Assembly: GCA_018398765.1 (NCBI GenBank)
Contig: JAHBMJ010001585.1
Location: 5,001-27,772, forward strand
DNA length: 22,772 nucleotides
Direction: 5' to 3'
From: Chromera velia
Taxonomy: Eukaryota; Sar; Chromeraceae
Part shown: positions 1,061 to 20,497 of the stretch, piece after piece
How the letters are laid out: every line of letters begins with the position of its first letter
How positions within the stretch are numbered: position 1 is the first letter of the stretch
Notes under the pieces: generated by a model
What the model saw: the letters and a program-made list of their open reading frames with translations, nothing else
What the model was told of the DNA's origin: nothing
Databases searched by the model: none
Program-made: the position numbers and the translations under genes

Positions 1061-1117
1061 TCTTTTATGAGTCAACGTCTTTTACTTGCAGCGTAACTTA
1101 CTCCGAAAGTATCTGAG

Positions 1118-1245
1118 AATGTCGCGGCCGGCGCGGTGGGCGGCCTGCCTGGAGTTTTGGACCCTGGGCGGCGCCGGTCACCCTCTATGCAGACAACAGC
1201 GTTTCGGGACCTCGGGCCACCGCGGTATCGAATCGGGTTTCAGAA
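1118..1245. other. GC-rich structured block, SINE- or tRNA-like at most
   Basis: This is a GC-rich island between AT-richer neighbours. GGCCGGCGC near 1124-1132 can pair with GCGCCGGTC near 1171-1180, giving a 9-bp stem with one G-U pair. Downstream, GGTATCGAATCGGG resembles a pol III B box, and TGGGCGGCCTG upstream could be a loose A box. No complete tRNA cloverleaf could be drawn, so this is only a structured block that might derive from a small RNA or SINE. Confidence 0.2.
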
Positions 1246-1391
1246 AAAACGCGGTCTGCAGCAATCGGAACAATCCAAACCGCCAGAAATTCATGGATTC
1301 AGCTAGCTTGATTGAGACTTCTAGCAGTTCGATGGATCGATTTAGCATTGACATTCTCTTTACCTGTATAAACCTGAATAGATCGTGTGCC

Positions 1392-1441
1392 TGTGTGTGT
1401 GTGTGAGTGGGTTCCCTCCGAAGGAAACGTCTTCGGAAGGT
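1392..1441 (+). repeat. (TG)n run followed by a hairpin
   Basis: A TG dinucleotide run (1392-1405) is followed by an inverted repeat. TCCGAAG (1417-1423) pairs with CTTCGGA (1431-1437), extended by CC/GG across a one-base bulge, with a 7-base loop. It lies just before the coding signal begins and may be in the leader of the element. Its function is unknown. Confidence 0.45.
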
Positions 1442-2434
1442 AGGTTATTCATCTACCACTAGAATCAACGTTAATGGTGACGAAGCTCCTATCGGATTTC
1501 AGTTTCGTTTGACTGCGTCCACTTCTACCAAAAAACAACCTTCTGATTCCTTCCATCGGCTGAAGTTTGGAGTCCTTCAGCCACTCATCGCTTCTTTCTT
1601 CCCTCCTCTCTTTCCATGCAGACGCGAAAGAAGAAGAGAGAGAGAAAAGAAAGAGAGAGGGAAAGAGACGGTACGTCTGCTCTTCGGAGCGAGTCAGTCC
1701 CTCCCTCTCTTTCACCCAAAAATGATGGCCATGCTGATGCAGAAAGCCGTCGTTCCATTTTTTCGCCTCCGTCTGATTTTTGTGGGTACGAGACGGCTAG
1801 CCCTTTGGCAAAGCTGAATCAAACCTCTTCACTTTTTCCCTCTTCCGCCCCTCTCCCTCCAATTTTGCCACGTTCTCACTCCTTTCCCGACATGAACGAA
1901 GGCGGTGCAGATGCAAAAGGCTCTCGTTCCCTTTTTCCCTCTCCCTCTGGCTTGCGTCCTCAAGAGACTTCAAACCCTTCGGTCAAGGAAACTGAAGAAA
2001 GACAAGTCTCTCTTTCCCTTTCCCCCTCTCGCCCTCTCCAACGTATAGATCTCGCCTCTGCACAAGCTTTTTCTTCACCTCCATCTCATCTTGTCTCATC
2101 TTCGCTTCACATGATCCAACCTTGCAGCAGAGAGATGGCACCTAAGGCGGCCACGGCGGTGAGTCCAGTCAAGGTACCTCTCAGGGTTCCACCTCTCCCC
2201 TTCTATGAACCATCACAGTCCTCTTCCTCTGTTCTGTCTCGTCAGATCAATGTGGGAGTATCGAGTGTTTCGGCCCCCATATCTTCTTCTTCTCTCGCTC
2301 CTTTTCCTGCCTCTGTGTCTGTGAGAGGAAAAGAAGACAACCATGAGAAAGAAGTGCATAGAAACAGTGAGACAGATGGAAAGACAGAAAAACAGTCTGA
2401 TAAAGACCCTGTCCAACCTCCCACTTCCAGTTTT

Positions 2435-2770
2435 CTTCAATCCACCCTTTCGCCTGAGTCTGCCCGTCTTAACGCAGCGGTGCTTGAAGGAAGGCAGAAG
2501 GCTGAATGAAAAGAAACCAAACTGAAGGAATTGGAAGAGATGAAGCGGAAAGAAGTATGGTATTCGAGAGAGATTGAGACTCGTTTGGCTGTCTCCCAAC
2601 CTTCACCTGCCTAGATCCCATCTCCTCCCTCCCAACTTCACACGGTTCTTTCACCTGAATCTGCTCGTCTCCACAGTGCTCTCAATGCAGAAAGAGAAAA
2701 GGCAGAGCGGAAAGCAAAGCAGGTAAAAGAAATTGAGGAATTGAGAAAGAAAGGGAAGGAGATGAGTGAT
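2435..2770 (+). repeat. Two-copy 201-bp in-frame coding repeat (SPESARL units)
   Basis: Two protein units with a 67-codon period start at 2435 and 2636. Both contain SPESARL followed by Ala/Glu-rich and Lys/Glu-rich helix-forming sequence. The TGA at 2507 in unit 1 aligns with a CGG arginine codon at 2708 in unit 2, so the stop arose in a former sense codon. The Lys/Glu pattern suggests a coiled coil. Confidence 0.7.
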
Positions 2771-3013
2771 TGAATGCAGGAGATAATGAAGAACAGTAGT
2801 CACAATCGTTGCTAACCTGAATCCATCTCCACTGCCTCTTTTGGACATCCTCCCTGCCTGCAGGCGACCTCTGGGAGTCTTCGCCCCCCCCCTGAGAGAG
2901 GACGGAGGGGAATTGATCAAGAAAGAGAGGCAGAGACAGAGAAACAGAGACCAATTATTGATAGAGACAAAGTGGTGCATGTCGGTAAACTTTCTTATAA
3001 TCTTTCTTCATCT

Positions 3014-3223
3014 ATGAATGCGACTGCGGACCCTCCTGATGGAAAAGTCCAATTTCGCTCGTCCCTTACCCCCTTTTCGCCCCCTATGAATGCGGACCTT
3101 CCTGTTGGAAAAGTCCAAAGTCATGCATCTCTCTTTCCACCTGTTTCTGGCCCTCTGAATGCGGACCATCCAGTTGGAAGCGTCCAATTTCAGAGTGTAT
3201 CTTTTCCCCCGCCCACTCGCTTC
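3014..3223 (+). repeat. Three tandem 23-24 residue coding repeats (N-A-D...GKVQ)
   Basis: Units start at 3014, 3086 and 3155 (72, 69 and about 69 bp). Each has the pattern (M/L)NA-(x)-D-x-P-x-G-(K/S)-VQ followed by a Ser/Pro-rich spacer. The lengths are multiples of three, so the reading frame is kept, supporting this as the translated frame. Confidence 0.75.
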
Positions 3224-3769
3224 CCCCAAAGCTTACCAACACAACCGCCTCTGTCGTTATCTGGTCTAGCGCACGGCCTAACTGGTCTCTGTGTCTCTGG
3301 CGTGCCTCGTGGGGAGAACTTCGGTGTCTCTCCTTCTCAATCTTTCCTCCCGGTAAGTACACACTGTCCTCATCCATCCTCACACTCTGCTCACCCTTCC
3401 AAACCCCTTGTCTTTCCTATAAACTCTAAAAATTCTTCTCCTCACTCTTTAGGTTCTTATGCCCCAAAAGCTGAGAATCCTAGGCTTGAATTTTCTGATT
3501 CAAGAAATCAGTTTCTTCAGTCTAATCTTTCTACTTTTCCTAGTGCTCAAAGCGTACAACTTCTGCCTCCTTTTTCAACTAAAGTTGGCATAGAAGTAGG
3601 AAAAGAAAACGAAAAAGATGAGGCAATTAGTTTTTCCAGACAGCCTGTCTGCAAGCCTAGACTCGTCACAGAGCGAAACTATGAGTCAGAAACAAGGCTC
3701 ACGAAAGACAAGAAGGAGGAAAGAGAGAGTGACGCAGACCTTCGGCACCATGACAAGTTGGTCAGATAA

Positions 3770-4873
3770 ATCCTAGAAAAAATAGAGCAGACGCCTAAAG
3801 AAATAATTCTCTTTATGCCTAAAGGGAAAGGGATGAAAGGCAATCCTTTTCTCCGTGAAAAAGTTGCTCATCAGAAACGACAATTCCTCAATTTCTGTAG
3901 AAACATGACTGAGCCATATCGACCAGCTGTTCAAAATGAGGTGACAGAACGAGCTCTTGATAGTTTTCCTCGTAGAGCAATCGAAATGCAACCTGAAGCG
4001 ATTCAATATGAACTGCGCGCTGCTGGTATGCAGATTCGGAAGGGAATCTGGTCCGAGGAAGAGCAGAATACGGTTCCGATGAGGCTGACGTTCGTGGAAC
4101 TCGAGGCAATCGCTGCGCATATGGAGGGGTACGCCTTCGATCTCCTCTTGCTGAGACCAGTTGAGATTATGATGAAAGTACATAGATGGAAAGGAGAATC
4201 TCTCCAAAAATATGCTCTCCGTCTTGACAGAGAAGTGGAGTCAGAAATAAAATTCCTGACCAAACATATTTTCCCTGACACTTCTACTCTGCGCCCTCAT
4301 CTGTGTCGTCTCCTGCCGTCTGCTCCTGTTTGGAATCCCACAGTGACCATCTCTGTGTTCTTTGCAACGGCCGGTCTGGATGACGATGTACACAAACATG
4401 CCTCTGATGCTCTGCAAAGATATCATGAACAGGTCATATTTGTTAGCGTTCTCAGTGATAAAAAATGCACAGCATGGTTACTCACGAACACTCTCACTTT
4501 TGCTTCTGTCCCAATAGATATTAAACAGGGTCTCACATACCCCTGGTTCGTAAATAATGTGAACAGAATAATGAGAGAATATGGTGCATCTGTATCTGAA
4601 CCCGGACCTGACCCTATTCTGAATGAGACCAGCTCGCTAGCTATCACACGCATCCAGCAGCACATGAATCGCACGATGAGAGAGCATGGCCATGCAGGTG
4701 GAAATCAGAGCCAGCCTGCAGTAAGTGTCCCTCTTACCCCTTCACAGACAAAGCCTCGTTCAAACCAGCCACACGAAAGACAGAAAGGAGGATCGACTCA
4801 TCAAGTCATTAAGCAGCCTCCCCATCAAACTCCTCATACATTCACAATACAAGCTGCTCAGCCACTTTTCTGA
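3770..4873 (+). pseudogene. Gag/capsid-like segment
   Basis: An open frame runs from the TAA at 3767 to a TGA at 4871, with a Met at 3815. The predicted ~350-residue globular stretch is mostly helical and lacks the Ser/Pro bias of its neighbours. Around residues 125-140 from that Met, the pattern W-K-G-E-S-L-Q-K-Y-A-x-R-L-x-x-E resembles the core helix of retrotransposon Gag capsids, where a Glu-Ser-(x)-x-x-Tyr-x-x-Arg segment is common. The last 80 residues turn Gln/Pro/Ser-rich and lead into an RGG-box tail. By position and this pattern it is probably the structural protein that packages element RNA. The match is by eye and weak in sequence; a diverged unrelated protein is possible. Confidence 0.5.
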
Positions 4874-5215
4874 AATCCTCCTCCTCCCCCCCCCCCTCCT
4901 GGCAATCCTACCTCTTCTTCTTTACAGGGTACAGGGCCACCTACTTTTGGTGTCAGCCCTCCCAGCAGTTCTTCTTCCCCCCCAACTGGATGGCAGGGAG
5001 GACCTGCGGGCTCATCTGCAGCCACTCGAGGAAGAGGAGGACTGACAAGAGGACGTGGGAGAGGGAGAGGCCAAGGAGGCAAGCAAAATGATGGGTGGGT
5101 CAAGGATCTGACCAGGGAAGGTATTGAACCTAACCCTGGTCCCTCTGGCACCGAAAAGGCTGCGGCAACGATAGCTTATCCTCCCTCCCAGGCCGAAGAA
5201 AACTTTGAGGGCTAA
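4874..5215 (+). pseudogene. Polyproline and RGG-box tail of Gag, ending in a 2A-like peptide
   Basis: This stretch is in the same frame as the capsid-like segment but has no Met, so it is missed by start-codon searches. After the TGA at 4871 come a run of about eight prolines, a Gly/Ser/Pro linker, and an Arg/Gly-rich stretch at 5027-5080 with repeated RG pairs. RGG boxes bind RNA and can stand in for a zinc-knuckle nucleocapsid, which is absent here. The 2A-like motif follows immediately (5096-5143). A TAA lies at 5213. Confidence 0.6.
5096..5143 (+). other. 2A-like ribosome-skipping motif 1
   Basis: The frame reads WVKDLTREGIEPNPGP. It carries the invariant C-terminal core of 2A peptides, (D/G)-(V/I)-E-x-N-P-G-P, including the final Pro. 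In known 2A peptides the ribosome fails to join Gly and Pro and then resumes, giving two proteins from one frame; here the break would fall between 5140 and 5141. It sits exactly at the end of the RGG tail, where a Gag product would be expected to end. Gly replaces the usual Asp at the start of the core, so activity is inferred, not shown. Confidence 0.75.
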
Positions 5216-5905
5216 GAGAGGGAGGAGATGAACGATTTCCCTTCTTTAGCACCCTCCGACTCTGACGAAGCGGAGTTGGAAATCTTTGCCTACCATGCGG
5301 CCGAGGTCCAGACGAGACTGCTTCACAGACAGCCACGTCGGTCGAAACCTCGCCCACGCAGGCGTCACAACCCAGACCGAGAGGGTGCTAGGCATCGGAG
5401 GAGGCAATCGCAGAATGCCACCCCGCAAAGGGATTCACACCCTGAGGCCCCTGACCTCCTTCCAAGTGATCCTGCAGCTAAGTCTGATCTTCCTATGATA
5501 AGCACTCCAGGAAGAAACTTTTTAACACCCCATCGGTCTTTTTCAGAGACTCCCCACAGGTCTGACCAGTCAGTTGCTCTCAACTCTCTCACGGTCACAC
5601 CCCCAAAGCCTTTTGATTTTCGTACACAGTTCCCCACGACATCTGCCCATTACTACCCTCCACCTCTAACAATACCTCCCTTTCCTCTGTTCCTCTGTAT
5701 TCCCATCGCCCCTCCGACAGTCCGCTCAATCGCTGCTCCCGAAAGTCCTTCGAGCCCTCCTGCGAACCCCCTTCTTTCCCTCTCACTGGGAGAAGGGGAA
5801 ATGGAAGGTCCTCCTGACTCCTCCCAGAGAGGGGCTACACGAAATAAGCGACCAGAAGGAGCTGTGGCTGCAAACACAGACCAGCTTGATCACGAAAGGC
5901 TGTGA
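5216..5905 (+). pseudogene. Arg-rich then Pro/Ser-rich polyprotein segment
   Basis: An open frame with a Met at 5228 lies between the TAA at 5213 and a TGA at 5903, in phase with the segments on both sides. The first third is acidic, then strongly basic (clustered Arg with Pro, His and Gln, around residues 35-75), which could bind nucleic acid or act as a nuclear localisation signal. The rest is Pro/Ser/Thr-rich and probably disordered. No domain was recognised. It follows 2A-like motif 1, so it would open the second mature product. Confidence 0.5.
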
Positions 5906-6874
5906 GAGAATAAAGGCTTTTCACCGCTCTATACGGTAGCAAAGGCAATCAAAGTAATGGGGGGAAAAATGACCGAAGACACAGTACACCCAGTTTTGGC
6001 AGACACCATTCTCACTCGATTCCTTCGGGAGCCATTCCACCTTGGAACCCCAGCTCTAGAGAACATTTTTTCCCCCGCCACCTCTTTCCGCTCTTTGACT
6101 GACCTGGATATCAACATCTTGCTGAAGTATTGGGGTCTCAGCATGATCCTAATATCTACGCAGGAGGTTTACGACACCCTCGCTCAGCCAACGACCGACC
6201 CACACACGTGCCTCGTGGTGGGGGAGGCCTGTCTCGAAGAGACGGAATGGACAGTTGTGGCTCCTTCTGAAGGGGCGCAGACCCAATCAGAGAGACAGGG
6301 CTGGACAAAATGGTCCATGGGAAAAGAAAAAGAGAGAAGAGTCACAGGGTTTGATCTGTTTTTTCGAGAGATAAAAAATGAAGGGACTGAAATGGCCGTC
6401 TTCTCACTCGAACGAATACAAACTTGTGAGATGCCCTCTTGCCGAGCATCTCTCCATGAAACGAACTCAAACACCCCCCGTTCCGTCTCCTACCCTGGCT
6501 GCCCTTACCTACACTTCGCTTGCATGCCCTGCCGTACCAAAGCCATGTTCCCGCCGCTCCGTGAACCTTCTCCTGACACTTTTTGCCCCCAGTGTAAACG
6601 CCTTCCTTCCGCAGAGATGAGCAAAGCCGAGGACTACCGCAGAGCAGTCTGGAAGAGTACGGTCCCACAGCAGACGCTGCCACCTGATCCCATCGCACTG
6701 CAAAGACGATTGATTAAATCAATCCATATAAGGATCCGATATACTCAGTCTCACCTCACTCTCTCCGAGGTGTGGCACCTGCATGACCAGCTCGACCACT
6801 ACCTTGCCGCGTGTTTACGCAGTAGGGAGTGGGAAGAGTGGGGAGAACACGACGATGGGGAGTCAGATGGATAG
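5906..6874 (+). pseudogene. Polyprotein segment with a RING-like zinc finger
   Basis: An open frame (Met 5957 or 5969) ends at a TAG at 6872 and is in phase with both neighbours. The first ~150 residues look globular and are not recognised. A Cys/His cluster follows at 6425-6595 with spacing C-x4-C-x19-C-x3-H-x2-C-x2-C-x17-C-x2-C. This matches the RING cross-brace pattern apart from the first pair (x4 instead of x2). A helical, Arg/Leu-rich and then acidic tail follows. RING domains usually recruit E2 enzymes for ubiquitin transfer, though the assignment here rests on spacing alone. Such a module is not a normal part of copia elements; a different zinc-binding fold is the main alternative. 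Confidence 0.55.
6425..6595 (+). other. RING-like Cys/His zinc-binding motif
   Basis: The eight ligands are Cys codons at 6425, 6440, 6500, 6521, 6530, 6584 and 6593 and a His codon at 6512. The core reads CPYLHFACMPC, and the last pair is CPQC followed by a basic residue, as is common in RING fingers. Confidence 0.55.
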
Positions 6875-7384
6875 GGGGCCGGAGATAAAGAATCTTCCAT
6901 GAATGTGAATGGAGGCCATGCAGATGCAAACGGCCCCCAGGATCATTTAGGACCGCCCCCTCAAAAGGAAAACATTCCTCGACCCAGCAGCTGGGTGAAA
7001 GATCTGACAGCAGACGGGGATATCGAACCCAACCCAGGCTGGGATGAGGGGAGTGATTCTCAGAGTGATAAAGCCCTGGGAAACAACGCCCCTGTTTCAA
7101 CCCCGCTGTCTCTTCGAGAGCTAGCTCTATCCCTTACGCCTGCCTCTATGCCTCCCCTTGAGGCACTGTCAGAAGTCTCGGACCTGGGCCTCTCTGACAT
7201 CCCATTAAATTCCTATGCTCCCTCCGAGGCCGCCTCAGTTCCTTCAGACGGCACACTCGCTTCTTTAGAAGATCTTGAAGGAATTGAGCTTGGGGATGGA
7301 ATGTATGGGGGAGGAGGATATTGGGAAAGGGATGCTGTAAACGACTTCGAGCGGGCGAGAGGGTCCGCACGAGGTTACATCTGA
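6875..7384 (+). pseudogene. Short acidic polyprotein module carrying 2A-like motif 2
   Basis: An open frame (Met 6899) runs from the TAG at 6872 to a TGA at 7382. It opens with NVNGGHADANG, which echoes the N-x-G-x-ADA units near 1721 and 1895, then reaches the 2A-like motif at 6992-7042. The remaining ~110 residues are acidic and Ser/Leu/Pro-rich, with a Gly/Tyr-rich patch near the end. No domain was recognised. The module is short enough to be a small separate product between two 2A-like sites. Confidence 0.5.
6992..7042 (+). other. 2A-like motif 2 (terminal Pro replaced)
   Basis: The frame reads WVKDLTADGDIEPNPGW. It has the canonical DIExNPG core and the same WVKDLT lead-in as motif 1, but Trp (7040-7042) replaces the final Pro needed for skipping. 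The change from Pro to Trp needs more than one base change. The motif may have lost activity or may never have skipped. Confidence 0.65.
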
Positions 7385-7909
7385 CAACTCTACGTCACCC
7401 TCTCTGTCACTCCTGCACTCTCTGATCTCGATCTCAGTGGCCCTGTGATCCTCGGCATCTTCCACCGATCTGGCTGGCACGACGGATCAAATGGTTTCTG
7501 GTCAGAGCAGTCGCTGACCTTCATCAACTACGCCGGTGCCCCCCAATTCCTCCCTAATCCCCTTCCTACCTCCTGGTTTAGTTTTAACCTTTTTTTTGAA
7601 AACGTCTCTCAACCAACCCACCCACCACCAACGGCAGGTGGTTGGATCAGAGATTTAACCGAAGAAGGAATTGAGCCGAACCCCGGACATCCAAAGAGGT
7701 ATGGAAGAGCAGAAGCATCGAGAAACAGGGGAAGTCAGTCATCTACTTCGAGGCCCATTCGCATCCAGCCTTCTCAGGCCTTCGTGAAAGTAACCGCAAC
7801 CTCCCCCCACTGCTCGGCCCCACACCTACGATTCCTTCTGTCCCTTTCTTTGAGGTCCTCTTTCATCAAGAAACCCAAGAGACGTCACAGGCACAAATGG
7901 AACCAATAG
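7385..7909 (+). pseudogene. Polyprotein module with 2A-like motif 3, ending in a frame change
   Basis: The frame continues past the TGA at 7382 through a hydrophobic, globular-looking stretch to the 2A-like motif at 7643-7690. It stays open to a TAG at 7907, but the next frame opens at 7678 and reads better as protein from about 7700 onward. A one-base loss between about 7690 and 7900 is the simplest explanation, and the end of this entry overlaps the next segment for that reason. Confidence 0.45.
7643..7690 (+). other. 2A-like motif 3 (terminal Pro replaced)
   Basis: The frame reads WIRDLTEEGIEPNPGH, almost the same as motif 1 with His in place of the final Pro. The three motifs share W-(V/I)-(K/R)-D-L-T, so they are copies of one extended element and not chance hits to NPG. 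Confidence 0.65.
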
Positions 7910-9717
7910 AGGGAGGCTTTCTTCCGAGTTCAGACGCTATCTCAGCATTTGGACCAGTCTCACCCCCGAGACCGACAGCAGCAGCAGATCTGCCTCCAAA
8001 CCCATTTGCCCCGCCTCTACCCCAACTGTCCATCTTTTCACCTCCCCCAAACCGAATCCCTCTCTCACAATTGACCCCGAGAAGAACAGTTCAACTGTCA
8101 TCTCCTCCTCGGAAACCTGTAGAGCTGAGACCTGCAAGTGCTCAGCGATCAGGAAATTACTCAGTTCGGACTGACACTTGGACAAACACAGGTTCATCCT
8201 CTTTCTTATCTTTTGCCGGTGCTGCCATCCTAGCCCAGAGTCAGCCTTTGTCCTCTGTCAGAGGCCCAGGCCTAGTGCTCCGCCTCCCAAATGGAGCCGA
8301 ACCTCCACTTGTGTCTGATTATACCCCCGGAGACCCCTTTTCCAATGATGGTCAATTGGGAAAAATGATACGGGTCTTACAGAGGACCCCGACAGAAGAA
8401 CATCAGTCGAACTTCTCCTCCTCCTCGACATCCCACCCCTTTGCACCTCCCCAACCCCTTGACCCCGAAGCTTCTTCTCAGTCGACCACGTTGATGTTAG
8501 GACCAGCTGGGCAAATACAATCAGAAATGCAGCCTGAGAATGGGGCGGTTGTTGGTTCTTTGAAAGAAGGCCGATCTGTCAGGCTCACTCACAAGAGAGC
8601 CTTGCCAGCGAATAAACCTGCCAGTGGCACCAGCATGGAGGAATGTTGGCTCGTCAACATCCCCATGTTGTTGAGAAGCCTTCAACGGATGTGCACTTCT
8701 GTGCCGCGACCCAAGGCGCAGGGAGAGTACCCCATACGCGTCCTCCTCAATGGTGCCACGGATGAGTGCAGGGTCGTTAGTGGGGCCATGCTGCAAATAG
8801 AACCGAAAGACGGTGCTATTGAAGTCCCAGATCCCCTCAAGAGAATCCCTCTCAGACAACTGAAACCGTACACCCTTAAAACGACCGATGGACAGCCCCC
8901 CACCTCGGTCCCCTCTGTGGTATGGAGGCGGGCGTTGCGAAAAAAGGGATACCCCCAGTCTGCACCTTTGGCAGTCTACCCAACCAGCCACTGGCTGCCA
9001 AGTGTTGAAGACAGGGAGTTTGGGATTGTTCAACCTGCAAAAGACGGTACAGGGGATTCAGAACAACTGATTGGTTTTTTCGGTGGAAAGAACAACCTTC
9101 TGCATCTGCCAGTGGGTCGGAGGGACCAGTATTTGTTCAATGTTGAGCGCGTGCTTGCCCCTGCACAAGAAAATGAGGAGGTTCAAGCCATCATGACACG
9201 TCTCCTGAAAATCTCTTTCTACTCCCTCCCAAACAACCTCCTCAAATTCCTGCTTGAGAATGAAGGACCAGGCGCCTCTGATCCCTCCCGACTGCCCTTC
9301 CACCTACCTGACAAGAGCTGGATTTTTTGTCGCGTTCACCTCTTCCACCTGGAGAGGTTTGACGAGTACCATTCAGCAGCGAGAGAGGAGATGCGTGAGC
9401 GAGGAGACACGAACCCAGATGAGGACCAAATAAAAAGGATGGCTGATGAGGCACTTGACAGTGTCTTGCCTGAGCGCCTTTGCATACCTTGCAGCGCTCG
9501 CAGCCTCATCGATGAAAACCGCAGACTGCAGGCTTTTCCCTACATTGATTACAATCCATCCAACCCTGCCATTGCTCCTCCGAGTGGTCTAGTGAGATGG
9601 AAAGGCATTGACCCCCGTCCCACAGCCCACGTCATTCTGAAAAAGCTGGACGGACCTGAATTTTTCAGGTTGTGGAAAGCCACGCGAAAGTCCGGTGCTA
9701 AGATTTCAGAGAAGTGA
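7678..9717 (+). pseudogene. Long unrecognised polyprotein segment (Met at 7897)
   Basis: This is the longest unbroken stretch: open from 7678 to a TGA at 9715, with the first Met at 7897 (606 codons from there). The first ~220 residues are Pro/Ser-rich. From about residue 230 it becomes globular with mixed hydrophobic and charged sequence. Around 8740-8790 it reads LLNGATDECRVVSGAML, which faintly recalls a retroviral-type aspartic protease active site (LLDTGAT...) but lacks the catalytic Asp. The C-terminal third has a long charged helix (near 9360-9470), a CIPC pair and a Trp/Lys/Gly-rich stretch. No family was recognised. Its length and lack of stops suggest stronger conservation or later decay than its neighbours. 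Confidence 0.55.
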
Positions 9718-10380
9718 GAGGATCTTTTCATCTCTGAAGAAAAGCATATGCGGGAGCCCCACAACTCCATCCTGGCTCTGCGATATGACACTTTCAAGCT
9801 CCTGTTGAACCCAATGTACGCGAGTGCCGATGTGTGCGACATTTGTGAGGTTCAACAGTTGGACCCTCGAGCATGCCTCGGACACAACTCGTACAACTGC
9901 CTCACCAGCAGTGGACTGACCTCCTGCTGTGGACACCGGCCTGGACTCCGGTACAGTCGGAAGGATGGCACGTCTTTCCTCTGCATCTGTGAACTAGACC
10001 CCACATGCACCTCCTGCTCATGTCCAGGAGGGGCAAAGTTCAGAGAGATTCGGGATGAGCCTCTTCATGGGGAACTCAGGCCCTTGCTTGAATGGTTCGT
10101 GAGGAAACGTTTCGAGCTTGAGCCAAATGAATGGGACAAGCTTCCGTTCTCTCTAGCCACCGTGTTTCGACAGATCTTTGTCCACGTTTTTTCTGTTGCA
10201 CAGAATCCAACGGAGGCACAGCAAGAGGACCGCCCTCCCAATCTGGGGTCAAAGCTCTACAAAGCGTCTTTGCTGAGGGTCGAACTCCCAGCCCAGCGGT
10301 GGCACGGAGTTCAAAAGGCAGAGCCATCTCTATCTTTGACCAAGAATCAAAAGCACAAAATAGCAGTAAGGCAGAGGTAG
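9718..10380 (+). pseudogene. Cys-rich, possibly zinc-binding polyprotein segment
   Basis: The segment is in phase with the one before, after the TGA at 9715; it has a Met at 9748 and ends at a TAG at 10378. Residues ~25-95 contain CDIC, a CLGH, CCGH, CIC and CTSCSC, at least ten Cys and two His, which suggests one or two zinc sites or a disulphide-rich fold. The downstream part is amphipathic with several Trp and Phe, then basic. Family unknown. Confidence 0.5.
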
Positions 10381-11226
10381 ACCGAGTCCTTTATCAGAGA
10401 CCTCAGTCCTTCGATCAGGCTGTCTCTGAGCGACCTGCATGTTCCGACTGGGGTTCACCCTGACGATGTTCGGGCCGCAGCCCCTCCTCGCCCAGGGGTA
10501 GCCGACACCAGATTGCAGTCGGTTCCAGAAGAGCCCGCTGTTCCTTCCAACTTCAAAGAGGAATTGGAAATAGGCCATAATTTCCTCCTTCTTAAGGCCC
10601 TCTATCAAGGAAAATGGGAGAGGCTCACGGAAGGGCAGATGGCATTGACACACTGGCAATCGACTGGCAGTCAAGTTCCGTCTGCCCAGGCTCTGATTGA
10701 TTTGATCTAGAAGTCGATCTTGCCAGACAGACTGAACACATTCATTTTAATTCACCCTCTTGTCTTCTTGCTCGATCTGCTGACAGACAGTAACGGACAC
10801 CCTCCAGCTTTTTTCATCCCTATATGGCTCAGGCACACGCCCAGTGAGCCTAGGGCGAAAGCATCCACCCTGCTCCCAAACTGGGTGGTCTTGATGAGGA
10901 TTTGGGGGTCCGCTGTTTTTTTCCCTCCGGAAAAGCAAGCCCGGTCCAGACTGGGAAAGGGTAGTCAGATTGATCAAGGGTCCGACGGCCTTCCCCTCCC
11001 TCGACCCTGCGAGAAAAGCTTTTATGCCTGGCTTCTTCATGAAGTTACTCAAAAGCCCAGGCAGGCTGTGCCTCCTTCCTCCTCTTCATCTACGGGTCTC
11101 TCCCTCCACCGCCCCCGCCCTCCGCGTCTGATGCTACCAGCACCCTTACCCGCAGAGGAAGCGCCCTCCCGTTTATCAGCTGCGCCAAGCACGCCGCGTT
11201 CCCAATTTTTGGATCAGTGTCTATAA
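10381..11226 (+). pseudogene. Unrecognised polyprotein segment
   Basis: The frame is continuous apart from a TAG at 10708, and ends at a TAA at 11224. The part before 10708 is helical and charged. The part after it is hydrophobic for ~30 residues (LIHPLVFLLDLL), then globular with Trp and Phe, then Pro/Ser-rich. The hydrophobic stretch is too short and mixed for a confident membrane call. No known domain was seen. Confidence 0.4.
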
Positions 11227-11982
11227 TCCTTCCCCTCCCAAGAAAGAAACACCACGAGAAAGAGGCTGAGAATCCATGATAAGCGACACTTTTTCACCTG
11301 TCTCCAGAGAATTTGCAATCGATATCATACGCTCCACGACCCGACGGCACGTCGGGCCCAGCAAATCCGGATCCGCGTGGCAGCGGATACTGCCAGTTCC
11401 ATTGACATCATGAGTGTCGATGAAGGTATCCACCTCCAACTGATCTTTAACAGGGATGGGGAGCTCCACCCAAACCCCGCCTTCTTTACGAGAAGGGAGT
11501 TTTTGAATGAAAAACAGATGATTCAAGGAGGGGGCGCTCAATTCCCTTCACTGAGCCGCAGTCTTATCCGAATTCGGATGGATGACGCTCGACCACAGAC
11601 TCTGCGCTCGTCCGGGAAGACCCTAGTCCACTTTGCCAAATTTCGTTTCCGAAACCACTTCCTCATTTTTGGTCTCAGTTGGCTCTGACGTTGCTCCTTC
11701 AATTGGAGAGAATTGGAGCCATACAGAGATGGAACCAGACATATCGAGATCTCCCATGGAAAAAACCTTCAGGGAATTGAGATGGAATGAAGCCGCTGGC
11801 TTCTTCCCGTCGATATCGATCTGATTCACACTCGGGTCACGTTTCTCCAGATCAATGAAGCCCCCCCTGACACCCACCTTTTCCACCCCGATACCCCCCT
11901 TTTTCACCTACCCGTCTCTTCTGCACGCCGTCAAAGAAGCCCGAGGGAACGTGCCATGGATGGGACGGGTGGCAGGGCTTGA
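11227..11982 (+). pseudogene. Unrecognised basic polyprotein segment with a degenerate NPG-like motif
   Basis: It is in the same frame, with TGA stops at 11686, 11788 and 11980. The first 60 residues are very basic (Arg/His/Lys). Near 11455-11484 the frame reads DGELHPNPAF, resembling the DGDIEPNPGW of 2A-like motif 2. The stretch after 11690 keeps protein-like composition in this frame, although other frames are also open in places. No family was recognised. Confidence 0.35.
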
Positions 11983-12552
11983 GCCCGCCCAGCAGCCTTC
12001 TCCCCCGACCCGACTCAAAAGGAACCCAGTCTCCCCGACAGGACCCTCAGTCCCCTGTCCCTCGCGGGGGACCGCGACGAGAGACCCATTTGGGCAAGGA
12101 GGACATCCTCACCAGACGCCTCCCTCAGGAGAATGAGAACAGCAGCCAGCTTCTCTCCCCCAGTGTTCCCCAGAAGCCCGTTGAAAAATTTGTTGGAGGA
12201 GAGTCGTCGGGAGGAAAGCACTCTGGGCATACAAGAGGAAGAGCAGTATACAGACGAGGACCAACCCGAAATCAACCCGTATCAGCAATGGGAGACGGAG
12301 CAGGACGCAACGGAGATGCAATTGGAGAAGCAGCAGGAGGAAGCTCCCCCGCCTACCCCCGAATCTGCAGAGCCGATGCAGTTGGTGGAGCAGCAGGAGG
12401 AAGGTCCACCGCCTGCCCCCGAATCTGCAGAACCAATGCAGTTGGTGGAGCAGCAGGAGGAAGCTCAACCAACTGCCCCCGAACCTGCAAAGTCGATGCC
12501 GATAGACGAACATCGAGAGAGTGATGAGGAATTGGTCGATTATGACCTTTGA
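11983..12552 (+). pseudogene. Acidic Gln/Glu/Pro-rich segment with 20-residue repeats
   Basis: In the frame carried from upstream it ends at TGA 12550, with an ATG at 12133. From about 12190 it is very acidic (Glu/Asp/Gln) and leads into three 60-bp repeats. Between about 11990 and 12190 a second frame also looks protein-like, so a pair of compensating indels is possible there. It is probably disordered; function unknown. Confidence 0.45.
12316..12495 (+). repeat. Three tandem 60-bp coding repeats
   Basis: Units start at 12316, 12376 and 12436, each encoding MQL-(E/V)-(K/E)-QQEE followed by a Pro/Ala/Glu-rich half. Because the unit is a multiple of three, two frames remain open across it. 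Confidence 0.9.
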
Positions 12553-13440: not shown

Positions 13441-14242
13441 GTCCTAAGAAGGTGAAAGTCAGTGCAGAATATGCACGTGAGTACCTGCAGTATGTATATC
13501 AGGAAGTGGGGCACATTGGTGGAAAGGCTCTTTACACTCTCGTCTCTCCGTATCTTGCCGTGAAAGGCCTGAGAAAAATGTGTGAAGAACTAAAAGCAGA
13601 GTGCAACACTTGCCTGCAAGTCCACGGTCTCCCAAGGCGCCTTCGTGGACAGAGAGGCTCTCATCTGAGAACTTGTGCCCCCCTGCAGCAGATAGCGGTG
13701 GACACAATTTTTCTGTATGGTCAACCTGTCTTGACGGTCATGTGTGAAGCGACAAGTTTCCTCATGGCCATCCCACTGAAAGACACGAAGGCAGAGACTG
13801 CATGGAAAGCTTTTGAGGAAGGATGGTTGAGACCTTTTGGCTATCCTCTTTCTTTTCGTGGGTTTGTAAAAACGGACAATGGGAGTGAATTCAAGGCCGT
13901 TTTCTCCTCCATGCTGGAGGACTTGGGAGTTAGACAGTTATGGACCCCCCCCGGTCCAATGGGCTGCTCAAACATCGGCATGATGATTTGAAACGTCTTG
14001 TCGAAGCAGCTCTTTTAGACAGAGGCATAGAAAAACGGCACTTCCGTCAAGTTCTTCCTCGCTGTGTGTCTCAACTTAACCTCCTTCCCTCTGTCAACTC
14101 TGACAAAAGATCTCCGTACGAACGTCTTACATCTCAACGTCTTCTCCCTCCCTCTCTTGAATGCATGCTTGCTGAAGTTCACAAGAAAGGTCCGACAGCA
14201 CTCTCTCCCCTGAATTTGACTGTCGGAGAAAGAGTATATTAG
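13441..14242 (+). pseudogene. Integrase (zinc-binding and DDE core), broken
   Basis: Integrases insert element cDNA into the host genome. The zinc-binding domain shows a GHIGG His (13512), then C-x2-C (13602, 13611) after 29 residues. The first His of the HHCC set seems replaced by Tyr. The core has the first Asp at 13701 (in AVD) and the second at 13875 (TDNGSEF). The third acidic residue, expected after NG-x-x, is Lys at 13970-13972. The frame shifts at a C8 run (13945-13952), and the second-to-third spacing is 31 residues instead of about 35, so a little more than one base may be missing. Then comes a C-terminal region ending at TAG 14240. The lost third residue and the shift make it inactive. 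Confidence 0.85.
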
Positions 14243-14848: not shown

Positions 14849-16465
14849 TTGTTTTCTAAACCTGTCCTCCCTCAACCTCCCTCTTCCCAAAGAGAACCCA
14901 AGTCAGAAAAAGACACTGAGCGCCAGAGTTTACTGACCCCTTCTCCTTCAGATGGAGAGACGTGGCGTTTCACAGTCCAGAGAAACCCAGAGCTATTGAA
15001 GAAGTGTCCATTGATCTTCTGGAAGGATGAAGAGCTGCAGAAAGGCATGGTTGGAAGGAAGGTTGGGGTATTGACAGATAGATTTCTTCTTGTGCATGTA
15101 TGGGGGTCCTATTCACAAGGACAACTGTGTGAAAGAGTCCTTACCCCACAGTTTTATCATCCCAACAACACCATCTGTTCCACCCTGACTTCTTCACTCA
15201 CTTGCTTTCCTTACATCCGAAAGGTGTCGCCTTCTTGTCTGAGAGAATCAGAACTTTTCCTTTCTTCTTCTCGTTGCCTGCTTCCTGATGCATGTGCAAA
15301 AATCGCAAAGCACCTTGACTCAGCCTCAATCTCTTGTCTTGGACTCAATCAGAGCAAGACAGCAGACGCGATCAAAAAGACGGAGGACTGGTTGAGAGAA
15401 GCACTCAAACTGTCCCCCGATCTTACTCTTTGGGAGATAGAAACGGAGTCTACTGACGTTCCATCAGACAGTGAAGAAAATAAATCGAATCAGCTGATAG
15501 AAAGTGTTTTCTTTTGTCTTGATGGTCTAACTGACCCTTCACAGTTCCGAATTCCTCTTTACTCTTCTAATGTCCCCAGTCCCTCTCTCCCTGATCTGTC
15601 CATCTCGTCTTCGTCTTCTTCTTTTTCTTCTTCTTTATCTTCCTCCCCGTCCTCTTCAGCAGCTGCAGAAGGAGAGAAACAGGCTCATTATTTTGCTGCA
15701 GGAGCAACGCATCAAAAATTCTCAGTACGTCACCTCTCTCCAGATCACATGACAGACTTTAAGGCAGCCAGGCAGAAGGAATTAGATAAATTTGAACGTT
15801 TTCGTGTATTTAAGGCAGTTCCAGTTCAGTCGGTTCCCAAGGGTTCGGTCGTCTTGCCTATACTGTGGGTAGACACCTTGAAACTGAATGACGAGGGTAA
15901 AAGGGAATTCAAGTTGAGATGGGTAATTTGGGGAGATCACGACCCGCGAAAAGGTCTTGAGGTGGCAACTGACCCATGTCCGCCCGAGAATATTCACCTG
16001 ATGCTACTTGCAGCACTCAGTAGCACAGGTTTCGACCCGTCTTTCATCAGCACTGTAGACGTAAACAATGCATTTCTGCAAGCACCAATAAATGACATGG
16101 TGTATGTACTCCCCCCGAAAGAACATCCTGACTATGGCAAAAAGCTCTGGCTGTTGCAGCGATGTATATATGGACTCTCTGAGAGCCCCCTTCTTTTTCA
16201 GAAATTTCTTGAATCAAAACTTCTCAAACATGGATGGGTGAAATCTCTCCTCCGGGGAATTTGGTGGAAACTGTCAACTGACGGGGAAGTGCTTGCATTG
16301 ATGTCTCTCTATGTCGACGATGTCTGTGTTGCCAGCCTCAGTGGCCCAGCAGAGAGCCATCTGCAGGAAATTATGCAAAAGGTCGAATGTAAGCAGATCA
16401 GACCACTGCAGAGCTATGTTGGAGTGTTCTATGAGGTCACAAAGGATGAGATCTGGTGCTCATAG
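14849..16465 (+). pseudogene. Ty1/copia-type reverse transcriptase
   Basis: This 538-codon open frame ends at TAG 16463. The first ~290 residues are linker, with a poly-Ser/acidic stretch near 15600-15670. The RVT_2-type domain starts near 15760: W-V-D-x-x-K-L-N-x-x-G and a K-L-R-W-V segment, then VDVNNAFLQAP with the first catalytic Asp at 16058, then the CIYGLSESP block (YGLxQ in most copia elements), then YVDD at 16310-16321 with both catalytic Asp residues. It copies element RNA into cDNA in cytoplasmic particles. The catalytic residues are intact, but the in-frame stop cuts it off from RNase H. It follows the integrase, which fixes the Ty1/copia order. Confidence 0.9.
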
Positions 16466-17788
16466 GAGTCTTATGCAGCTAGTCTAAATAACAGAGGTAT
16501 CAGACCCCTGGTTAATCCCATCCCCGACGCAGTAAGAAAGCAAGCAGACACATCCCCTCCCCTGAACAAGAAAGAGATAAAAACCTTCCAACAGAGTCTG
16601 GGTGAGCTTTCTTACCTGGCATCTTTTACGCGTCCTGATTTGGCATACGGCACAAGTCACATAGCACAGTGGAATGCCATTCCGACCGTAAATGCTTTTG
16701 GATGGCTCCAGCGACTTGTCTCCTGGGCTCGTGCACACTCCCTCCGTGGAGTGGCAGTTCCTCGCTCTCCCAGAGCAGAGCCCCTGCATGTTGAATTACA
16801 TACTGATACATCTTTTGGTATCCCAGCCCATCCTGAGCCTCAAATTGAGTGGGTACTCACCGTCTGTGGATGTCCGCTTGCCTGGAAGTCCATCAAACCA
16901 AAGAAGGTAGCAAAATCCACAACGGATATGGAATTCATTACCGCAGAGAACGGGGTCGAACTTCTCTCCTCTCTCCTCCCTTTCTTTGAGAAGCTTTGGC
17001 CGAAAGTACATAGAACGCTTTGGTCTGACAGTCACGATCTCGTGTCCCTGGTCGGTCAACCCGTCCTTTCTGGTACGAGGGCAACTCAACAGTCTCTTGC
17101 CGCTGAAATCGACGACCTACGAGAGAGAGAAGCAGTAGAGACGTCTCTAGTCAGTATATTGCAGAAAGCAGTGCACCAGGATGTTCAAGAGAAGTTCATT
17201 GCTCTTGAGCATATCTCGACTGTCCGGAATCTTGCTAACCCTCTCACAAAGGGAAAGAGTACGCATGAGCTCTACCGACTGTTAGAACAGAAGGGAAGGG
17301 AAGCACGGAAAGGTGCGATACATCCTCTTCCTGATCCACAAAAGAGGCCTATTCTTCTGCAACCTGACCTTCAAGCAGAAGTGTCAGTGTTCTTCGAGAA
17401 TATGAACCGAGCTCAAACCACTTTCTCACAATTTTTCCCACGCTTTCCCCTCATCTGTCCGACTCGTGCTCTTCGTGATGCATCTGTGACTCCTCTCTCA
17501 GCCTTTCACTTCCACATGCTCTCCCTTGCCATGGCTTGCTCAGCTTGCCATCAGATAGGACATTCATCTGACACAAGCCCTGATATGGAGGTAGAACGCA
17601 AGGGAAGAAAGGAACTCTACCTTGAGCGAGCGGGACATACTGGCAAAGGGTGTACGTTCTGTGCTGCGATCGGCTTCCTCAGCAAGGCCCATCGAGCAGC
17701 AGATCACGCGGTTGACCAGAGAATGCCTCCAACCACACTGGCTCCTGTCACCCCGATTGGACGCCTGGTGCGGCCTCAAATCCTCTGA
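16466..17788 (+). pseudogene. Ty1/copia-type RNase H with C-terminal extension
   Basis: It continues in the RT frame directly after the TAG at 16463; the first Met is at 16640, but the copia-like block starts earlier with ESYAASL and FTRPDLAYGTSH. The RNase H core shows HTDTSF (Asp 16805), W-K-S-x-K-x-x-x-V-A-K-S-T-T-D-M-E (Glu 16931), SDSHD (Asp 17027) and L-A-N-P-L-T-K-G, where Asn at 17237 replaces the usual last Asp. RNase H degrades RNA in RNA:DNA hybrids. After the normal end the frame runs on for about 170 more residues, with CSACHQIGH and GHTGKGCTFC near 17535-17670. The frame ends at TGA 17786. Confidence 0.85.
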
Positions 17789-18077
17789 AGTGCACCCTTT
17801 GGGACCTGCATGAATGCATGAATGCATGGCATTTGCTTTATTTTTTCTTCCTCTCCCTCTTCTCTTCCTATGCATGCATTCCTCTCTCTCATTGTGTACA
17901 TCAACAAAGACCAGGCCTGGCAACACCATAATGAAATTGAATGCCTCTCTTGAATGTCTCCTCCCCTTTCTTCTTTCTTTGAATATATATGATCGCTTCT
18001 GTTCTTTCATTGTTTCCTTCTCTCACTGCAACTGCATAATCCCAATTCAACCTCCACTTGAATTCCACACAAGCCAT
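17789..18077. other. 3' untranslated stretch, no gene
   Basis: It follows the end of the polyprotein. It has short TGCATGAA repeats at about 17808-17829, a TGCATGCA palindrome at 17871-17878 and pyrimidine-rich sequence. Nothing looks coding. Confidence 0.6.
17871..17878. promoter_or_regulatory. TGCATGCA palindrome
   Basis: An exact 8-base palindrome. TGCATGC-type sites are bound by AP2-family regulators in apicomplexans; use here is only inferred, and low complexity could explain it. Confidence 0.25.
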
Positions 18078-18390
18078 AAAGTGAAGGAGGGGCGCTCGAA
18101 AAAGAGATTGAAAAAGAATAAATAAAGTGAAGGAGGGGTGATCCCCCACAAAAACATTGACAAAGTGAAGGAGGGGCCCCTTCTCACAGTTTTTTCCTTC
18201 AGACGAACAAACCTGCATGCGATTTTTTCGGTCACTCCATACATGTATAGAGCTTGACTACAAAGAACCATAAAATGAAGGAGGGGGCGGCACGACGAAG
18301 CGCTATGCCCTTCCTCCAGAAGACAAAAGAAGGAATACAGACAGCTGCCATAAGAAAGACCAAGTAAGTCAATGGCATGAAAGGAGGGGG
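18078..18390 (+). repeat. Five copies of a purine-rich motif, polypurine-tract-like
   Basis: AAAGTGAAGGAGGGG occurs at 18078-18092, 18124-18138 and 18162-18176, with close variants at 18273-18287 and 18377-18390. Three of them follow ATAAA or AATAAA. LTR elements prime plus-strand DNA from one polypurine tract just before the 3' LTR, and this cluster lies about 290 bases after the polyprotein, where such a tract belongs. Copy 2 is followed by TG, the usual first bases of an LTR. The role is inferred from position and composition. Confidence 0.6.
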
Positions 18391-19889
18391 ACGCCTCACC
18401 CTTTGCCTGGCAGACTGACTCTGACCTCTCTTCTCTTCTCTGTTTGTTTCTCTTCTCTTCTCTTCTCTTCTTTTCTATGTTTCGATTGTTTCTTCTTTCT
18501 CACCCGGCCGGGACCCCTCCCCCTCCTTTTCTGTCATGATTTATCTTTCTCCCCTCTTGAAACAGCTAACCGTAAGAATCAAGCCACGTTTTTTCTCTTC
18601 AGTTTTTTCCTTTCTCTGACACTTCTCTTCTTATGTCTCATTGGATAAGCAATCGATCATTTATCCTTCTGTCCTACTGTGCACCCTCTTCTCTCTTCCC
18701 AATGAATGCATTTGTGTACATGAATGCATACATGCAAGTGAAAAAGAAAAAGACATTTAATTCTTGCAAGACCATGATGAAGAAAAGAAAGTGTAAGACT
18801 GTCAATCGAACCTACCCGTCTCTTGGCAGACCCTTGCACCCAGCCAATGCATGTCTTCTCTCCCTCTTCTCCTCTTCTGCAAATACAAGCAGGACAAATG
18901 CATGAATGATTCTGGTGGTCGGCCCTCAGGCCGAGCAAGAATCTGGTTTCTCTCTGTGCCTTCTCTTCTTAGACTCTAATCTCGACTGCTGCCGACAATC
19001 CTACAAGAAGAAAAATGCCCTCAAAGGAGTCCACGTCAAAGCACCAGGTGCCCCCCCACCAATTGTGCGAGACTCCCCAACGGCAGCATACATAAACATT
19101 TTTTTTCGAGACTGGATTCGAAAGAAAGAAAGCTGGAGGAAACGGATTCACCACTGGAGTTCTTCTTGCATTTTAACCTGTTCTGTGTTTGTTTTGGAGG
19201 TTCCCTTTTTTCTTCAGTTTTGTCTTCAGAAGGAAAGAACAGTCTAAAAGAAGCAGGGAAAGGAAAAAGATGACTACGTCAAGTTTGCACTAACCGGTCA
19301 AGTCCATGCCTCTTATGTCTCCATATGTCTCCCCTTTCTTCCTTCCCGATCACGTAAGTGTCAGGAAGAATAAAGAAGACTGACAAAATATACTAACAGC
19401 TGCAGCTCAAGGATCTGCAGTCTTTCCTCGTTACCTGCAGTCAAAAGACATATGAACGTGCGAAATGAGACAAGAGAATTCATGTAAGCATGCGTGATCT
19501 TAATGTTCCTCTCCCTTTTTTCTTATCCCCGGTCTCAACGGAGTTTGATGCATAGAATTACTTGGCCAGTTCATGAAAAAGTGGCATCGGTCTTTCTTTT
19601 TTTTTCTTTGTTTTCTGTTGGCTGATCCAGGTACCTTGCCCTTATCGATCTACCAATTCGTTTTTCTTTGTGTGGTCTCCCCAAACTTGAGAGAAATTGC
19701 CGACTTGACCTCCCTTCCCCCATATCGCCCTCCTTTTCTCACAACTGTCAAGCCTGGCTTTCTCTCTCTCGCTGGAAGATTACCAAAAGAAAGAGTTCCT
19801 AACTTCTTGTTTCCTGACGCTCCCCCCTTTCTTTCAATCCCTTCGTCCCCGGTATCATAACATCATGCGAATCTTGAGGACAGCGTGAA

Positions 19890-19897
19890 TGCATGCA
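19890..19897. promoter_or_regulatory. TGCATGCA palindrome
   Basis: Second exact copy of the palindrome in the non-coding 3' region, within GAATGCATGCATGATGC. Confidence 0.25.
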
Positions 19898-20489: not shown

Positions 20490-20497
20490 TGCATGCA
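20490..20497. promoter_or_regulatory. TGCATGCA palindrome at the edge of repeat A1
   Basis: Third exact copy, ending immediately before the first base shared with repeat A2 (20498). Confidence 0.25.

What the first reader, a model, noticed from the sequence alone, without database searches (positions are those of the whole stretch)
5096..7690. Three 2A-like peptides dividing a copia-type retroelement polyprotein
Three in-frame motifs at 5096, 6992 and 7643 share W-(V/I)-(K/R)-D-L-T...(G/D)-I-E-P-N-P-G. The first has the complete NPGP ending. They sit between distinct modules: the end of the Gag RGG tail, after the RING-like segment, and before the long unknown segment. 2A-like peptides are established in some viruses and non-LTR retrotransposons; serial use in a giant Ty1/copia-type gag region would be unusual. 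Motifs 2 and 3 end in Trp and His, so only motif 1 is predicted to skip.
Basis: partly seen in the sequence, partly recalled or inferred. Interest (0 to 1): 0.88.

Follow-up and report, generated by a model that had tools for sequence, protein, structure and literature searches.

The report
Ribosome-skipping peptides in giant LTR retrotransposon
A 20-kilobase jumping gene of the copia kind carries three copies of a short virus-type peptide that makes ribosomes release one protein and carry on with the next, and the same peptide also occurs in ordinary genes of this organism, where such peptides are rarely reported.

Summary
Three in-frame 2A/StopGo-like peptides lie at 5096-5143 (WVKDLTREGIEPNPGP), 6992-7042 (WVKDLTADGDIEPNPGW) and 7643-7690 (WIRDLTEEGIEPNPGH). 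They sit in the long first ORF of a ~20-kb LTR retrotransposon with a copia-type reverse transcriptase. Sister copy C273 has both 360-bp LTRs and a 5-bp target duplication.

Motifs 1 and 3 fit the published StopGo class 1; motif 2 fits class 4 (the same WV(R/K)DLTx[acidic]G signature shifted by one residue). NPGW stands at 8 of 9 motif-2 sites found in the genome, so it is ancestral. His after NPG remains unproven.

The motifs' codons are no more alike than random synonymous choice predicts, so the peptide, not recent duplication, is what persists. I found no protease signature in the pieces examined.

The same peptide occurs in host loci, including a spliced exon of an EI24-domain gene. However, the only transcript-like protein seen there has a degenerate NPWP.

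Activity is inferred; no assay was run. The closest prior survey (Rao et al., Cell Reports 2025) could not be read.

The parts
1114..1473 (+). 5' LTR (360 bp, TGAGAATG...CAACGTTA)
   Evidence: Same 360-bp sequence bounds copy C273 on both sides with 5-bp TSD GTGAT; window LTR identical at 349/360 (5') and 344/360 (3') columns
1616..12552 (+). Span of ancestral ORF1 (giant gag-region polyprotein); interrupted here by stops and at least one frameshift. ATG at 1616 is a candidate start only
   Evidence: ORF list and frame-2 stops; C2589 copy open from before motif 1 to ...ELVDYDL-stop with 3 premature stops. The part before about 4650 was not checked in another copy
3770..5095 (+). Gag-like segment ending in an RGG-rich tail
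   Evidence: Translation; no Pfam match for 3770-4873; 'Gag' is inferred from position and RGG tail
5096..5143 (+). Motif 1, WVKDLTREGIEPNPGP (StopGo class 1; G at p12, P at p15, P at p19)
   Evidence: NPGP in 6 of 7 close-family sites found, TPGP in the 7th; pN/pS 0.10 against 0.54 for the rest
6425..6595 (+). Cys/His cluster (RING-like, CxxxxC...CxxxHxxCxxC...CxxC)
   Evidence: Translation; no Pfam match, so RING-like by eye only
6992..7042 (+). Motif 2, WVKDLTADGDIEPNPGW (StopGo class 4; G at p11, D at p12, W at p19)
   Evidence: NPGW in 8 of 9 motif-2 sites found, NPG-stop (TAG) in the 9th
7643..7690 (+). Motif 3, WIRDLTEEGIEPNPGH (StopGo class 1; H at p19)
   Evidence: NPGH in 5 of 8 sites found, H at p19 in 8 of 8; a ninth place, C24, keeps the upstream flank but not the motif
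7691..12552 (+). Long segment of unknown function downstream of motif 3 (the frame shifts to frame 1 in this copy)
   Evidence: no Pfam match in the C2589 counterpart at E<=1
13467..13955 (+). Integrase (H2C2 zinc-binding plus rve core) in ORF2 (pol)
   Evidence: Pfam rve E 6e-5, H2C2 E 0.009 in the window; H2C2 5.9e-5, rve 4.2e-4 in C2589; all below the curated cut-offs
15824..16426 (+). Copia-type reverse transcriptase
   Evidence: Pfam RVT_2 E 8.7e-17, 62 bits against cut-off 31.6
16466..17788 (+). Segment after the RT, probably RNase H and C-terminal part
   Evidence: Inferred from order; no significant Pfam match
17789..20498 (+). 3' non-coding part of the element; this copy ends at 20498, where it meets a tandem satellite and lacks the last ~181 bp and the 3' LTR
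   Evidence: 4 copies (C500, C1153, C273, C2589) align to exactly this point, then 181 bp and an LTR

Best explanation
ORF1 of a giant (~20 kb) copia-type LTR retrotransposon uses serial StopGo (2A) recoding. As each WV(R/K)DLTx[acidic]G(D)(I/V)EPNPG peptide passes through the ribosome exit tunnel, it holds the Gly ester bond of the P-site tRNA so that it is hydrolysed rather than joined to the next residue. Translation then continues. The predicted products are a Gag-like protein ending ...NPG (ends at 5140), a RING-like protein starting with Pro (5141-7039), a 216-aa protein starting with Trp (7040-7687), and a large protein starting with His (7688-12549). Motif 1 is very probably active, motif 2 (NPGW) probably, motif 3 (NPGH) perhaps only partly, giving a mixture of fused and separated products. 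Shown here: sequence, frame, conservation, and fit to the published motif classes. Inferred: activity, product boundaries, and that skipping replaces proteolytic processing in ORF1.
For: Exact fit to the StopGo classes of PMC12846837 (class 1: WV(R/K)DLTx[acidic]G with G=p12, P=p15; class 4: same signature, G=p11, D=p12). Representatives of both were almost 100% active in reticulocyte lysate, and a natural p19=W variant reached 91.5%. Near-identical picornaviral 2As are listed in PMC11512398 Table 1 (e.g. GGWIRDLTAEGVEPNPGP, GWVRDLTVDGDVESNPGP). Motif 1 is the most conserved: pN/pS 0.10 against 0.54, with only 16 of 950 other 16-codon windows as conserved. The three motifs share peptide but not codons: DNA identity 31-33 of 48 (motif 2 compared without its extra Asp codon) against synonymous-shuffle means of 31.6-33.4. 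The peptide has therefore been held through synonymous saturation, or arisen more than once, which argues for function at all three sites. p19 is W at 8 of 9 motif-2 sites and H at 8 of 8 motif-3 sites found. No D[ST]G[AST] protease motif in any frame of the fetched C2589 pieces, about window 4650-14000, and no protease family at E<=1 in seven segments.
Against: No assay. The window copy is dead. Motif 2 is no more conserved than its surroundings (403 of 946 windows as conserved) and motif 3 only mildly (189 of 950); the pooled set gives 846 of 20000. Motif 3 is broken in C1153 (NPEH, twice) and C743 (stop and NPRH), absent from C24 although its upstream flank is there, and in C3413 expanded into decayed units; motif 1 is TPGP in C743. 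Diverged motif-1 fragments read NPDW and NPRL (C2154, C3485). More distant relatives of the RING segment (C850, C3853, C1070) show no such motif in the stretches fetched. His at p19 has no published support that I could read. A protease too diverged for Pfam, or one outside the pieces examined, cannot be excluded; a looser search found one Asn-Thr-Gly-Ser stretch in ORF1, next to a Ser run.
Confidence: 0.6

Rival explanations
1. Only motif 1 works; motifs 2 and 3 are inactive relics of former 2A sites.
For: Pro at p19 is nearly universal in viruses (PMC12846837); motif 1 is clearly the most conserved; motif 3 is broken in 3 of 8 sites found and absent from C24.
Against: W at p19 is a tested natural active variant; W (motif 2: C24, and a stop one base from W in C3413) and H (motif 3: C3413) recur in copies up to ~25% diverged; the rest of each motif matches motif 1 in peptide but not codons, which relics would not be expected to keep.
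Confidence: 0.23
2. The sites stop but seldom go: they release Gag-like product and mostly end translation there, setting an excess of upstream over downstream proteins.
For: A very close picornaviral sequence, GGWIRDLTAEGVEPNPGP (potamipivirus B1 2A2), gave the upstream product with little or no downstream product in vitro (PMC11512398).
Against: Class 1 and 4 representatives in PMC12846837 gave almost 100% StopGo activity; three serial stops would leave almost no product of the 4.9-kb last segment.
Confidence: 0.1
3. The peptide is a short protein-binding or structural motif kept for another reason, and resembles 2A by shared ancestry or convergence only.
For: It also sits inside a spliced host exon where the transcript-like protein has a degenerate NPWP core, and in a decayed tandem array in C3413.
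Against: The shared residues are those of the StopGo core and upstream signature, in both known offset classes.
Confidence: 0.05
4. Chance resemblance or low-complexity artefact.
For: None found.
Against: 0 of 200 shuffles; pattern controls 0, 3 and 2 against 15, 38 and 17.
Confidence: 0.01

Closest known systems
StopGo/2A classes 1 and 4 of RNA viruses (PMC12846837); e.g. aalivirus, kunsagivirus and potamipivirus 2As (PMC11512398 Table 1)
   Same: Same WV(R/K)DLTx[acidic]G signature, same offset rule (G at p12 with P at p15, or G-D at p11-p12), multiple sites in one polyprotein, core E-x-NPG
   Different: Host is an LTR retrotransposon; two of three sites have W or H instead of P at p19; activity untested
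2A-bearing non-LTR retrotransposons (L1Tc of Trypanosoma cruzi; APE-type elements). Known here from passages citing them; the primary papers were not read
   Same: A retroelement that uses a 2A-like peptide in its coding sequence
   Different: Those are non-LTR elements; here copia-type RT, integrase, LTRs and several sites; that their upstream motif class differs is recalled, not tested
N-terminal 2A-like sequences of sea urchin NLR proteins (PMC4981915; abstract, section 4 and passages read)
   Same: 2A-like sequence in cellular genes, as in the host loci seen here
   Different: There at or near the N-terminus and many predicted to act as signal sequences; here the class-1 type inside an EI24 gene exon and in repeated cassettes
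Ty1/copia (Pseudoviridae) LTR retrotransposons (general knowledge)
   Same: RVT_2, integrase before RT, LTRs, 5-bp TSD
   Different: About 20 kb, huge ORF1, pol in a separate ORF, no recognisable protease in the pieces examined, StopGo-like sites

Membership tests
StopGo/2A recoding sequences | Core (D/G/C/N)(V/I)ExNPGP | tested here: met
   Motif 1 only: GIEPNPGP, in 6 of 7 close-family sites found
StopGo/2A recoding sequences | Same core at motifs 2 and 3 | tested here: not met
   DIEPNPGW and GIEPNPGH; W at p19 is a published active variant, H not documented in what I read
StopGo/2A recoding sequences | Upstream class motif WV(R/K)DLTx[acidic]G | tested here: met
   Motifs 1 and 2 exactly, motif 3 with Ile for Val
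StopGo/2A recoding sequences | Lies in frame between coding modules | tested here: met
   One frame holds all three motifs in sister copy C2589, with 3 premature stops over the fetched ORF1 stretch
StopGo/2A recoding sequences | Separates flanking proteins during translation | not testable with these tools
   Needs an in vitro translation assay
Ty1/copia LTR retrotransposon | RVT_2-type reverse transcriptase | tested here: met
   E 8.7e-17, above cut-off
Ty1/copia LTR retrotransposon | LTRs and short target-site duplication | tested here: met
   In copy C273: 360-bp LTRs, 343/360 identical, TSD GTGAT; the window copy lacks its 3' LTR
Ty1/copia LTR retrotransposon | Integrase upstream of RT | tested here: met
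   rve and H2C2 matches (below curated cut-offs) at 13467-13955, RT at 15824-16426
Ty1/copia LTR retrotransposon | Aspartic protease between gag and integrase | tested here: inconclusive
   No D[ST]G[AST] motif in any frame of the fetched C2589 pieces, no Pfam match at E<=1; looser pattern: one NTGS in C2589 ORF1 and one LDSGT in the window (9941, in a frame with stops)
2A-bearing non-LTR retrotransposon | RVT_1-type RT, no LTRs, no integrase | tested here: not met

The most novel reading that the evidence does not exclude
A copia-lineage LTR retrotransposon has given up protease processing of its gag-region polyprotein for a chain of StopGo sites, with Trp and His as natural start residues after the skip. 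In the same organism StopGo has also entered cellular genes through a spliced, copied exon, so StopGo is a regular cellular device in this lineage rather than a viral speciality.
Probability: 0.25. Interest if true: 0.86.

Novelty: new variant of a known kind. Interest (0 to 1): 0.65.

Why it matters
StopGo is described as common in RNA viruses and rare in cellular genes, with retroelement use cited only for non-LTR elements in the papers I could read. Three sites in one LTR element would extend it to a new class of mobile element. It would supply non-viral natural NPGW (and NPGH) sites for testing the new p19 rule, and would offer a protease-free way to divide a retrotransposon polyprotein. 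The host-gene copies raise the testable question whether the organism or its mobile elements spread the peptide.

Tried and rejected
Duplication of one motif into three sites: not detectable, because DNA identity equals synonymous-shuffle expectation. Recent exchange between motif 3 and the host exon: 38/48 against a mean of 35.7, 877 of 5000 shuffles as high, so not significant. LTRs inside the window: none found by self-comparison; they were found by comparing copies. Protein-database relatives: the RT query gave 1 weak plant hit (only the 8000 best candidates were scored), the RING-gene exon none, the EI24 exon one JGI protein. Rfam gave 0 matches in the window. Host identity: 58 matches to PF00504, the chlorophyll a/b-binding family, suggest a photosynthetic eukaryote. 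Chromera velia (193.66 Mb in 5,953 scaffolds) is my guess from size and GC against 177.8 Mb in 4,040 contigs here. It is unproven.

Prior art: searches listed no natural 2A in an LTR element among the titles and abstract openings shown (15 of 32 papers, 25 of 6,013, 15 of 412; 0 papers). [quoted passage not shown] Rao et al. 2025 (Cell Rep, PMC12338488) and Odon et al. 2013 (PMC3708506) were not held, so a prior report cannot be excluded.

In the selection counts, C2606 was first aligned past its true end. It was masked after window 6785, and those numbers are the ones used. Cells with stops or gaps were dropped. C24, C3413, C850 and the second copies in C3025 and C1153 were not in that count. 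On re-checking, a looser protease pattern had one Asn-Thr-Gly-Ser hit; the strict pattern was run afterwards. Confidence was lowered slightly (best explanation 0.62 to 0.60, novel case 0.27 to 0.25; first rival raised 0.22 to 0.23) for that and for the missing motif 3 in C24.
Full report
OBSERVATION. A peptide pattern for them gives 3 hits in the window and 0 in 200 base shuffles. In the 177.8-Mb genome that holds the window, a DNA pattern for IEPNPG gives 15 hits against 0 for the reversed control. The upstream pattern gives 38 against 3, and [VI]ExNPGP gives 17 against 2; the last two lists contain some matches that look like chance. A pattern for the class-1 motif gave no hit in viral contigs or in prokaryote genomes.

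THE ELEMENT. The window is one dead copy of a long LTR retrotransposon. Its RT matches Pfam RVT_2 (E 8.7e-17) and is preceded by integrase matches below the curated cut-offs, so it is of the copia type. Sequence 1114-1473 is the 5' LTR. In copy C273 the same 360 bp stands at both ends of a ~20.0-kb stretch (343 of 360 columns identical), flanked by the 5-bp duplication GTGAT. The window copy breaks off at 20498 inside a tandem satellite; four other copies continue for 181 bp into a 3' LTR. Eleven frame-2 stops lie between 1547 and 7907 here. In copy C2589 one frame runs from before motif 1 to a stop equal to window 12550-12552 with 3 premature stops, and integrase lies in a separate frame after it. 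ORF1 is therefore one giant polyprotein with the three motifs inside; its part before about window 4650 was not checked in another copy. In the fetched C2589 pieces I saw no D[ST]G[AST] protease motif and no protease family; a looser pattern found one Asn-Thr-Gly-Ser next to a Ser run. That is absence of evidence, not proof.

THE MOTIFS AGAINST WHAT IS KNOWN. The 2026 PNAS study PMC12846837 (I read the abstract, sections 7-11 and 14, and passages) defines upstream StopGo classes. Its classes 1 and 4 share WV(R/K)DLTx[acidic]G. In class 1 the G is p12 and p15 tends to be P; in class 4 the G is p11 and p12 is D. Motifs 1 and 3 here are class 1 and motif 2 is class 4. Representatives of both classes were almost 100% active in reticulocyte lysate. 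The study also found natural W at p19 (91.5% active; 80.5% when put into F2A) and natural H at p16 (>95%). The text gives no figure for His at p19, only that more than half of all p19 changes kept over 40%. Picornavirus 2As in Table 1 of PMC11512398 (passages and section 10) are nearly identical in sequence. A very close one, potamipivirus B1 2A2, gave mainly the upstream product. An earlier paper, PMC2885027 (passages), reports that a P at p15 in FMDV 2A works at ~99%.

CONSERVATION. Motif 1 ends NPGP in 6 of 7 sites found in close copies (C1583, C273, C2589, C2606, C3025 twice, one of them in a fragment) and TPGP in C743. Two diverged fragments (C2154, C3485) read NPDW and NPRL. Motif 2 ends NPGW in 8 of 9 sites found (C1583, C273, C2589, C3025, C743, C1153 twice, and C24, where the motif is split by an insertion). 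The ninth, C3413, has NPG then TAG, one base from TGG. Motif 3 ends NPGH in 5 of 8 sites found (C1583, C273, C2589, C3025, C3413), NPEH in C1153 twice, and NPRH in C743; p19 is His in all 8. In C24 the flank before motif 3 is present but the motif is not; the decayed extra units in C3413 were not counted. In a codon count over up to seven copies, pN/pS is 0.10 for motif 1, 0.50 for motif 2, 0.38 for motif 3 and 0.54 for the remaining 1010 codons. As-or-more-conserved windows number 16 of 950, 403 of 946 and 189 of 950; for random triples, 846 of 20000. Copy data therefore support motif 1 strongly, the pooled set weakly, and motif 2 not at all. Related copies are not independent. A different line of evidence covers all three: the motifs share peptide but their DNA identity (31-33 of 48, motif 2 without its extra Asp codon) is what random synonymous codons give (31.6-33.4). 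The peptide has thus either been kept while silent sites were scrambled or arisen repeatedly, and both point to function of the peptide. Against this, more distant relatives of the RING segment (C850, C3853, C1070) show no such motif in the fetched stretches.

THE SAME PEPTIDE OUTSIDE THE ELEMENT. Related motifs also occur at C994, C4024, C2768 (EGIEPHPGP, with the p16=H variant), C614 (degenerate EGTEPNPWP), C1322, C3884 (upstream of a RING-like exon; Pfam matches below cut-off), C998 (NPGS) and C3396 (frame with stops). C994, C4024, C2768 and C614 are copies of one cassette, with 74-84% identity over the block that holds the motif, each with a splice-acceptor-like TGCAG just upstream of the motif (sequence). 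At C4024 the cassette lies in an EI24-domain gene. A 510-aa JGI protein (P0002, from a 2,327-base contig) matches the other exons of this gene at 100% on both sides of the cassette exon, so the exon is spliced in frame. That the contig is a transcript is inferred from its length. In P0002 the motif reads EGTEPNPWP, like C614, while the C4024 reference reads EGIEPNPGP. The expressed form may therefore be inactive, or the sequence may be an allele or a chimera.

HOW IT MOST LIKELY WORKS. Serial StopGo would cut ORF1 during translation into a Gag-like protein with an RGG tail, a RING-like protein starting with Pro, a 216-aa protein starting with Trp, and a large protein starting with His. Motif 1 is very probably active (my estimate ~0.9), motif 2 probably (~0.65) and motif 3 uncertain (~0.4). 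These are judgements, not measurements. Fusion products from incomplete skipping may matter.

NOVELTY. The mechanism is known and the place is new as far as I could see. In the papers I read, retroelement use is cited for non-LTR elements only, and my searches showed no natural LTR case in what they listed. Rao et al. 2025, which surveyed cellular proteomes (so described in PMC12846837), could not be opened, so priority is unsettled. Hence 'new variant of a known kind'. The host is a photosynthetic eukaryote by its light-harvesting genes; Chromera velia is a guess.

Noticed in passing
L071 (G000:C4024) 3001-3170; protein P0002: A 2A-like exon is spliced in frame into an EI24-domain gene, between the EI24 part and a C-terminal, probably membrane part; the JGI protein carries a degenerate NPWP where the reference has NPGP.
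   Followed up: partly
L070 (C994), L071 (C4024), L074 (C2768), L075 (C614): A repeated cassette holding a 2A-like exon, shared at 74-84% identity around the motif by four loci: a possible exon-carrying repeat.
   Followed up: partly
L072 (G000:C3884) 2075-2953: SGWFHDLTKEGVEPNPGPGPG upstream of a RING-like exon in a gene away from the retroelement copies; no protein-database hit.
   Followed up: partly
L088 (G000:C3413) ~800-1190: Motif 3 expanded into tandem 48-bp units (GGWIRDLIKKGIEPTG...), all but the last having lost NPG.
   Followed up: partly
L067 (C3786) 1501; L054 (C105) 1501: Two further 2A-like sites of another type (CDCGDIESNPGP and ETYIESNPGP) with related downstream flanks; context not studied.
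   Followed up: no
window 20499-22772: Tandem satellite (copies about 1.26 kb apart in C2152) with many matches genome-wide; the element copy ends abruptly in it, by real truncation or misassembly.
   Followed up: partly
window 12315-12499: 60-bp coding tandem repeat (3.1 copies, MQLVEQQEE...) near the end of ORF1.
   Followed up: no
window 9-378: Dispersed repeat present in many contigs, about 0.7 kb upstream of the element.
   Followed up: no
G000:C1153:1336-3170 (L085): Tandem duplication of about 1.16 kb holding motifs 2 and 3, identical in the translated motif stretches; could be real or an assembly artefact.
   Followed up: no
L074 (C2768) 4727-5500: Open exon with a P-loop-like GGGKTRAL and LLVDEL stretch, about 2 kb downstream of a 2A-like exon; no Pfam match.
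   Followed up: partly
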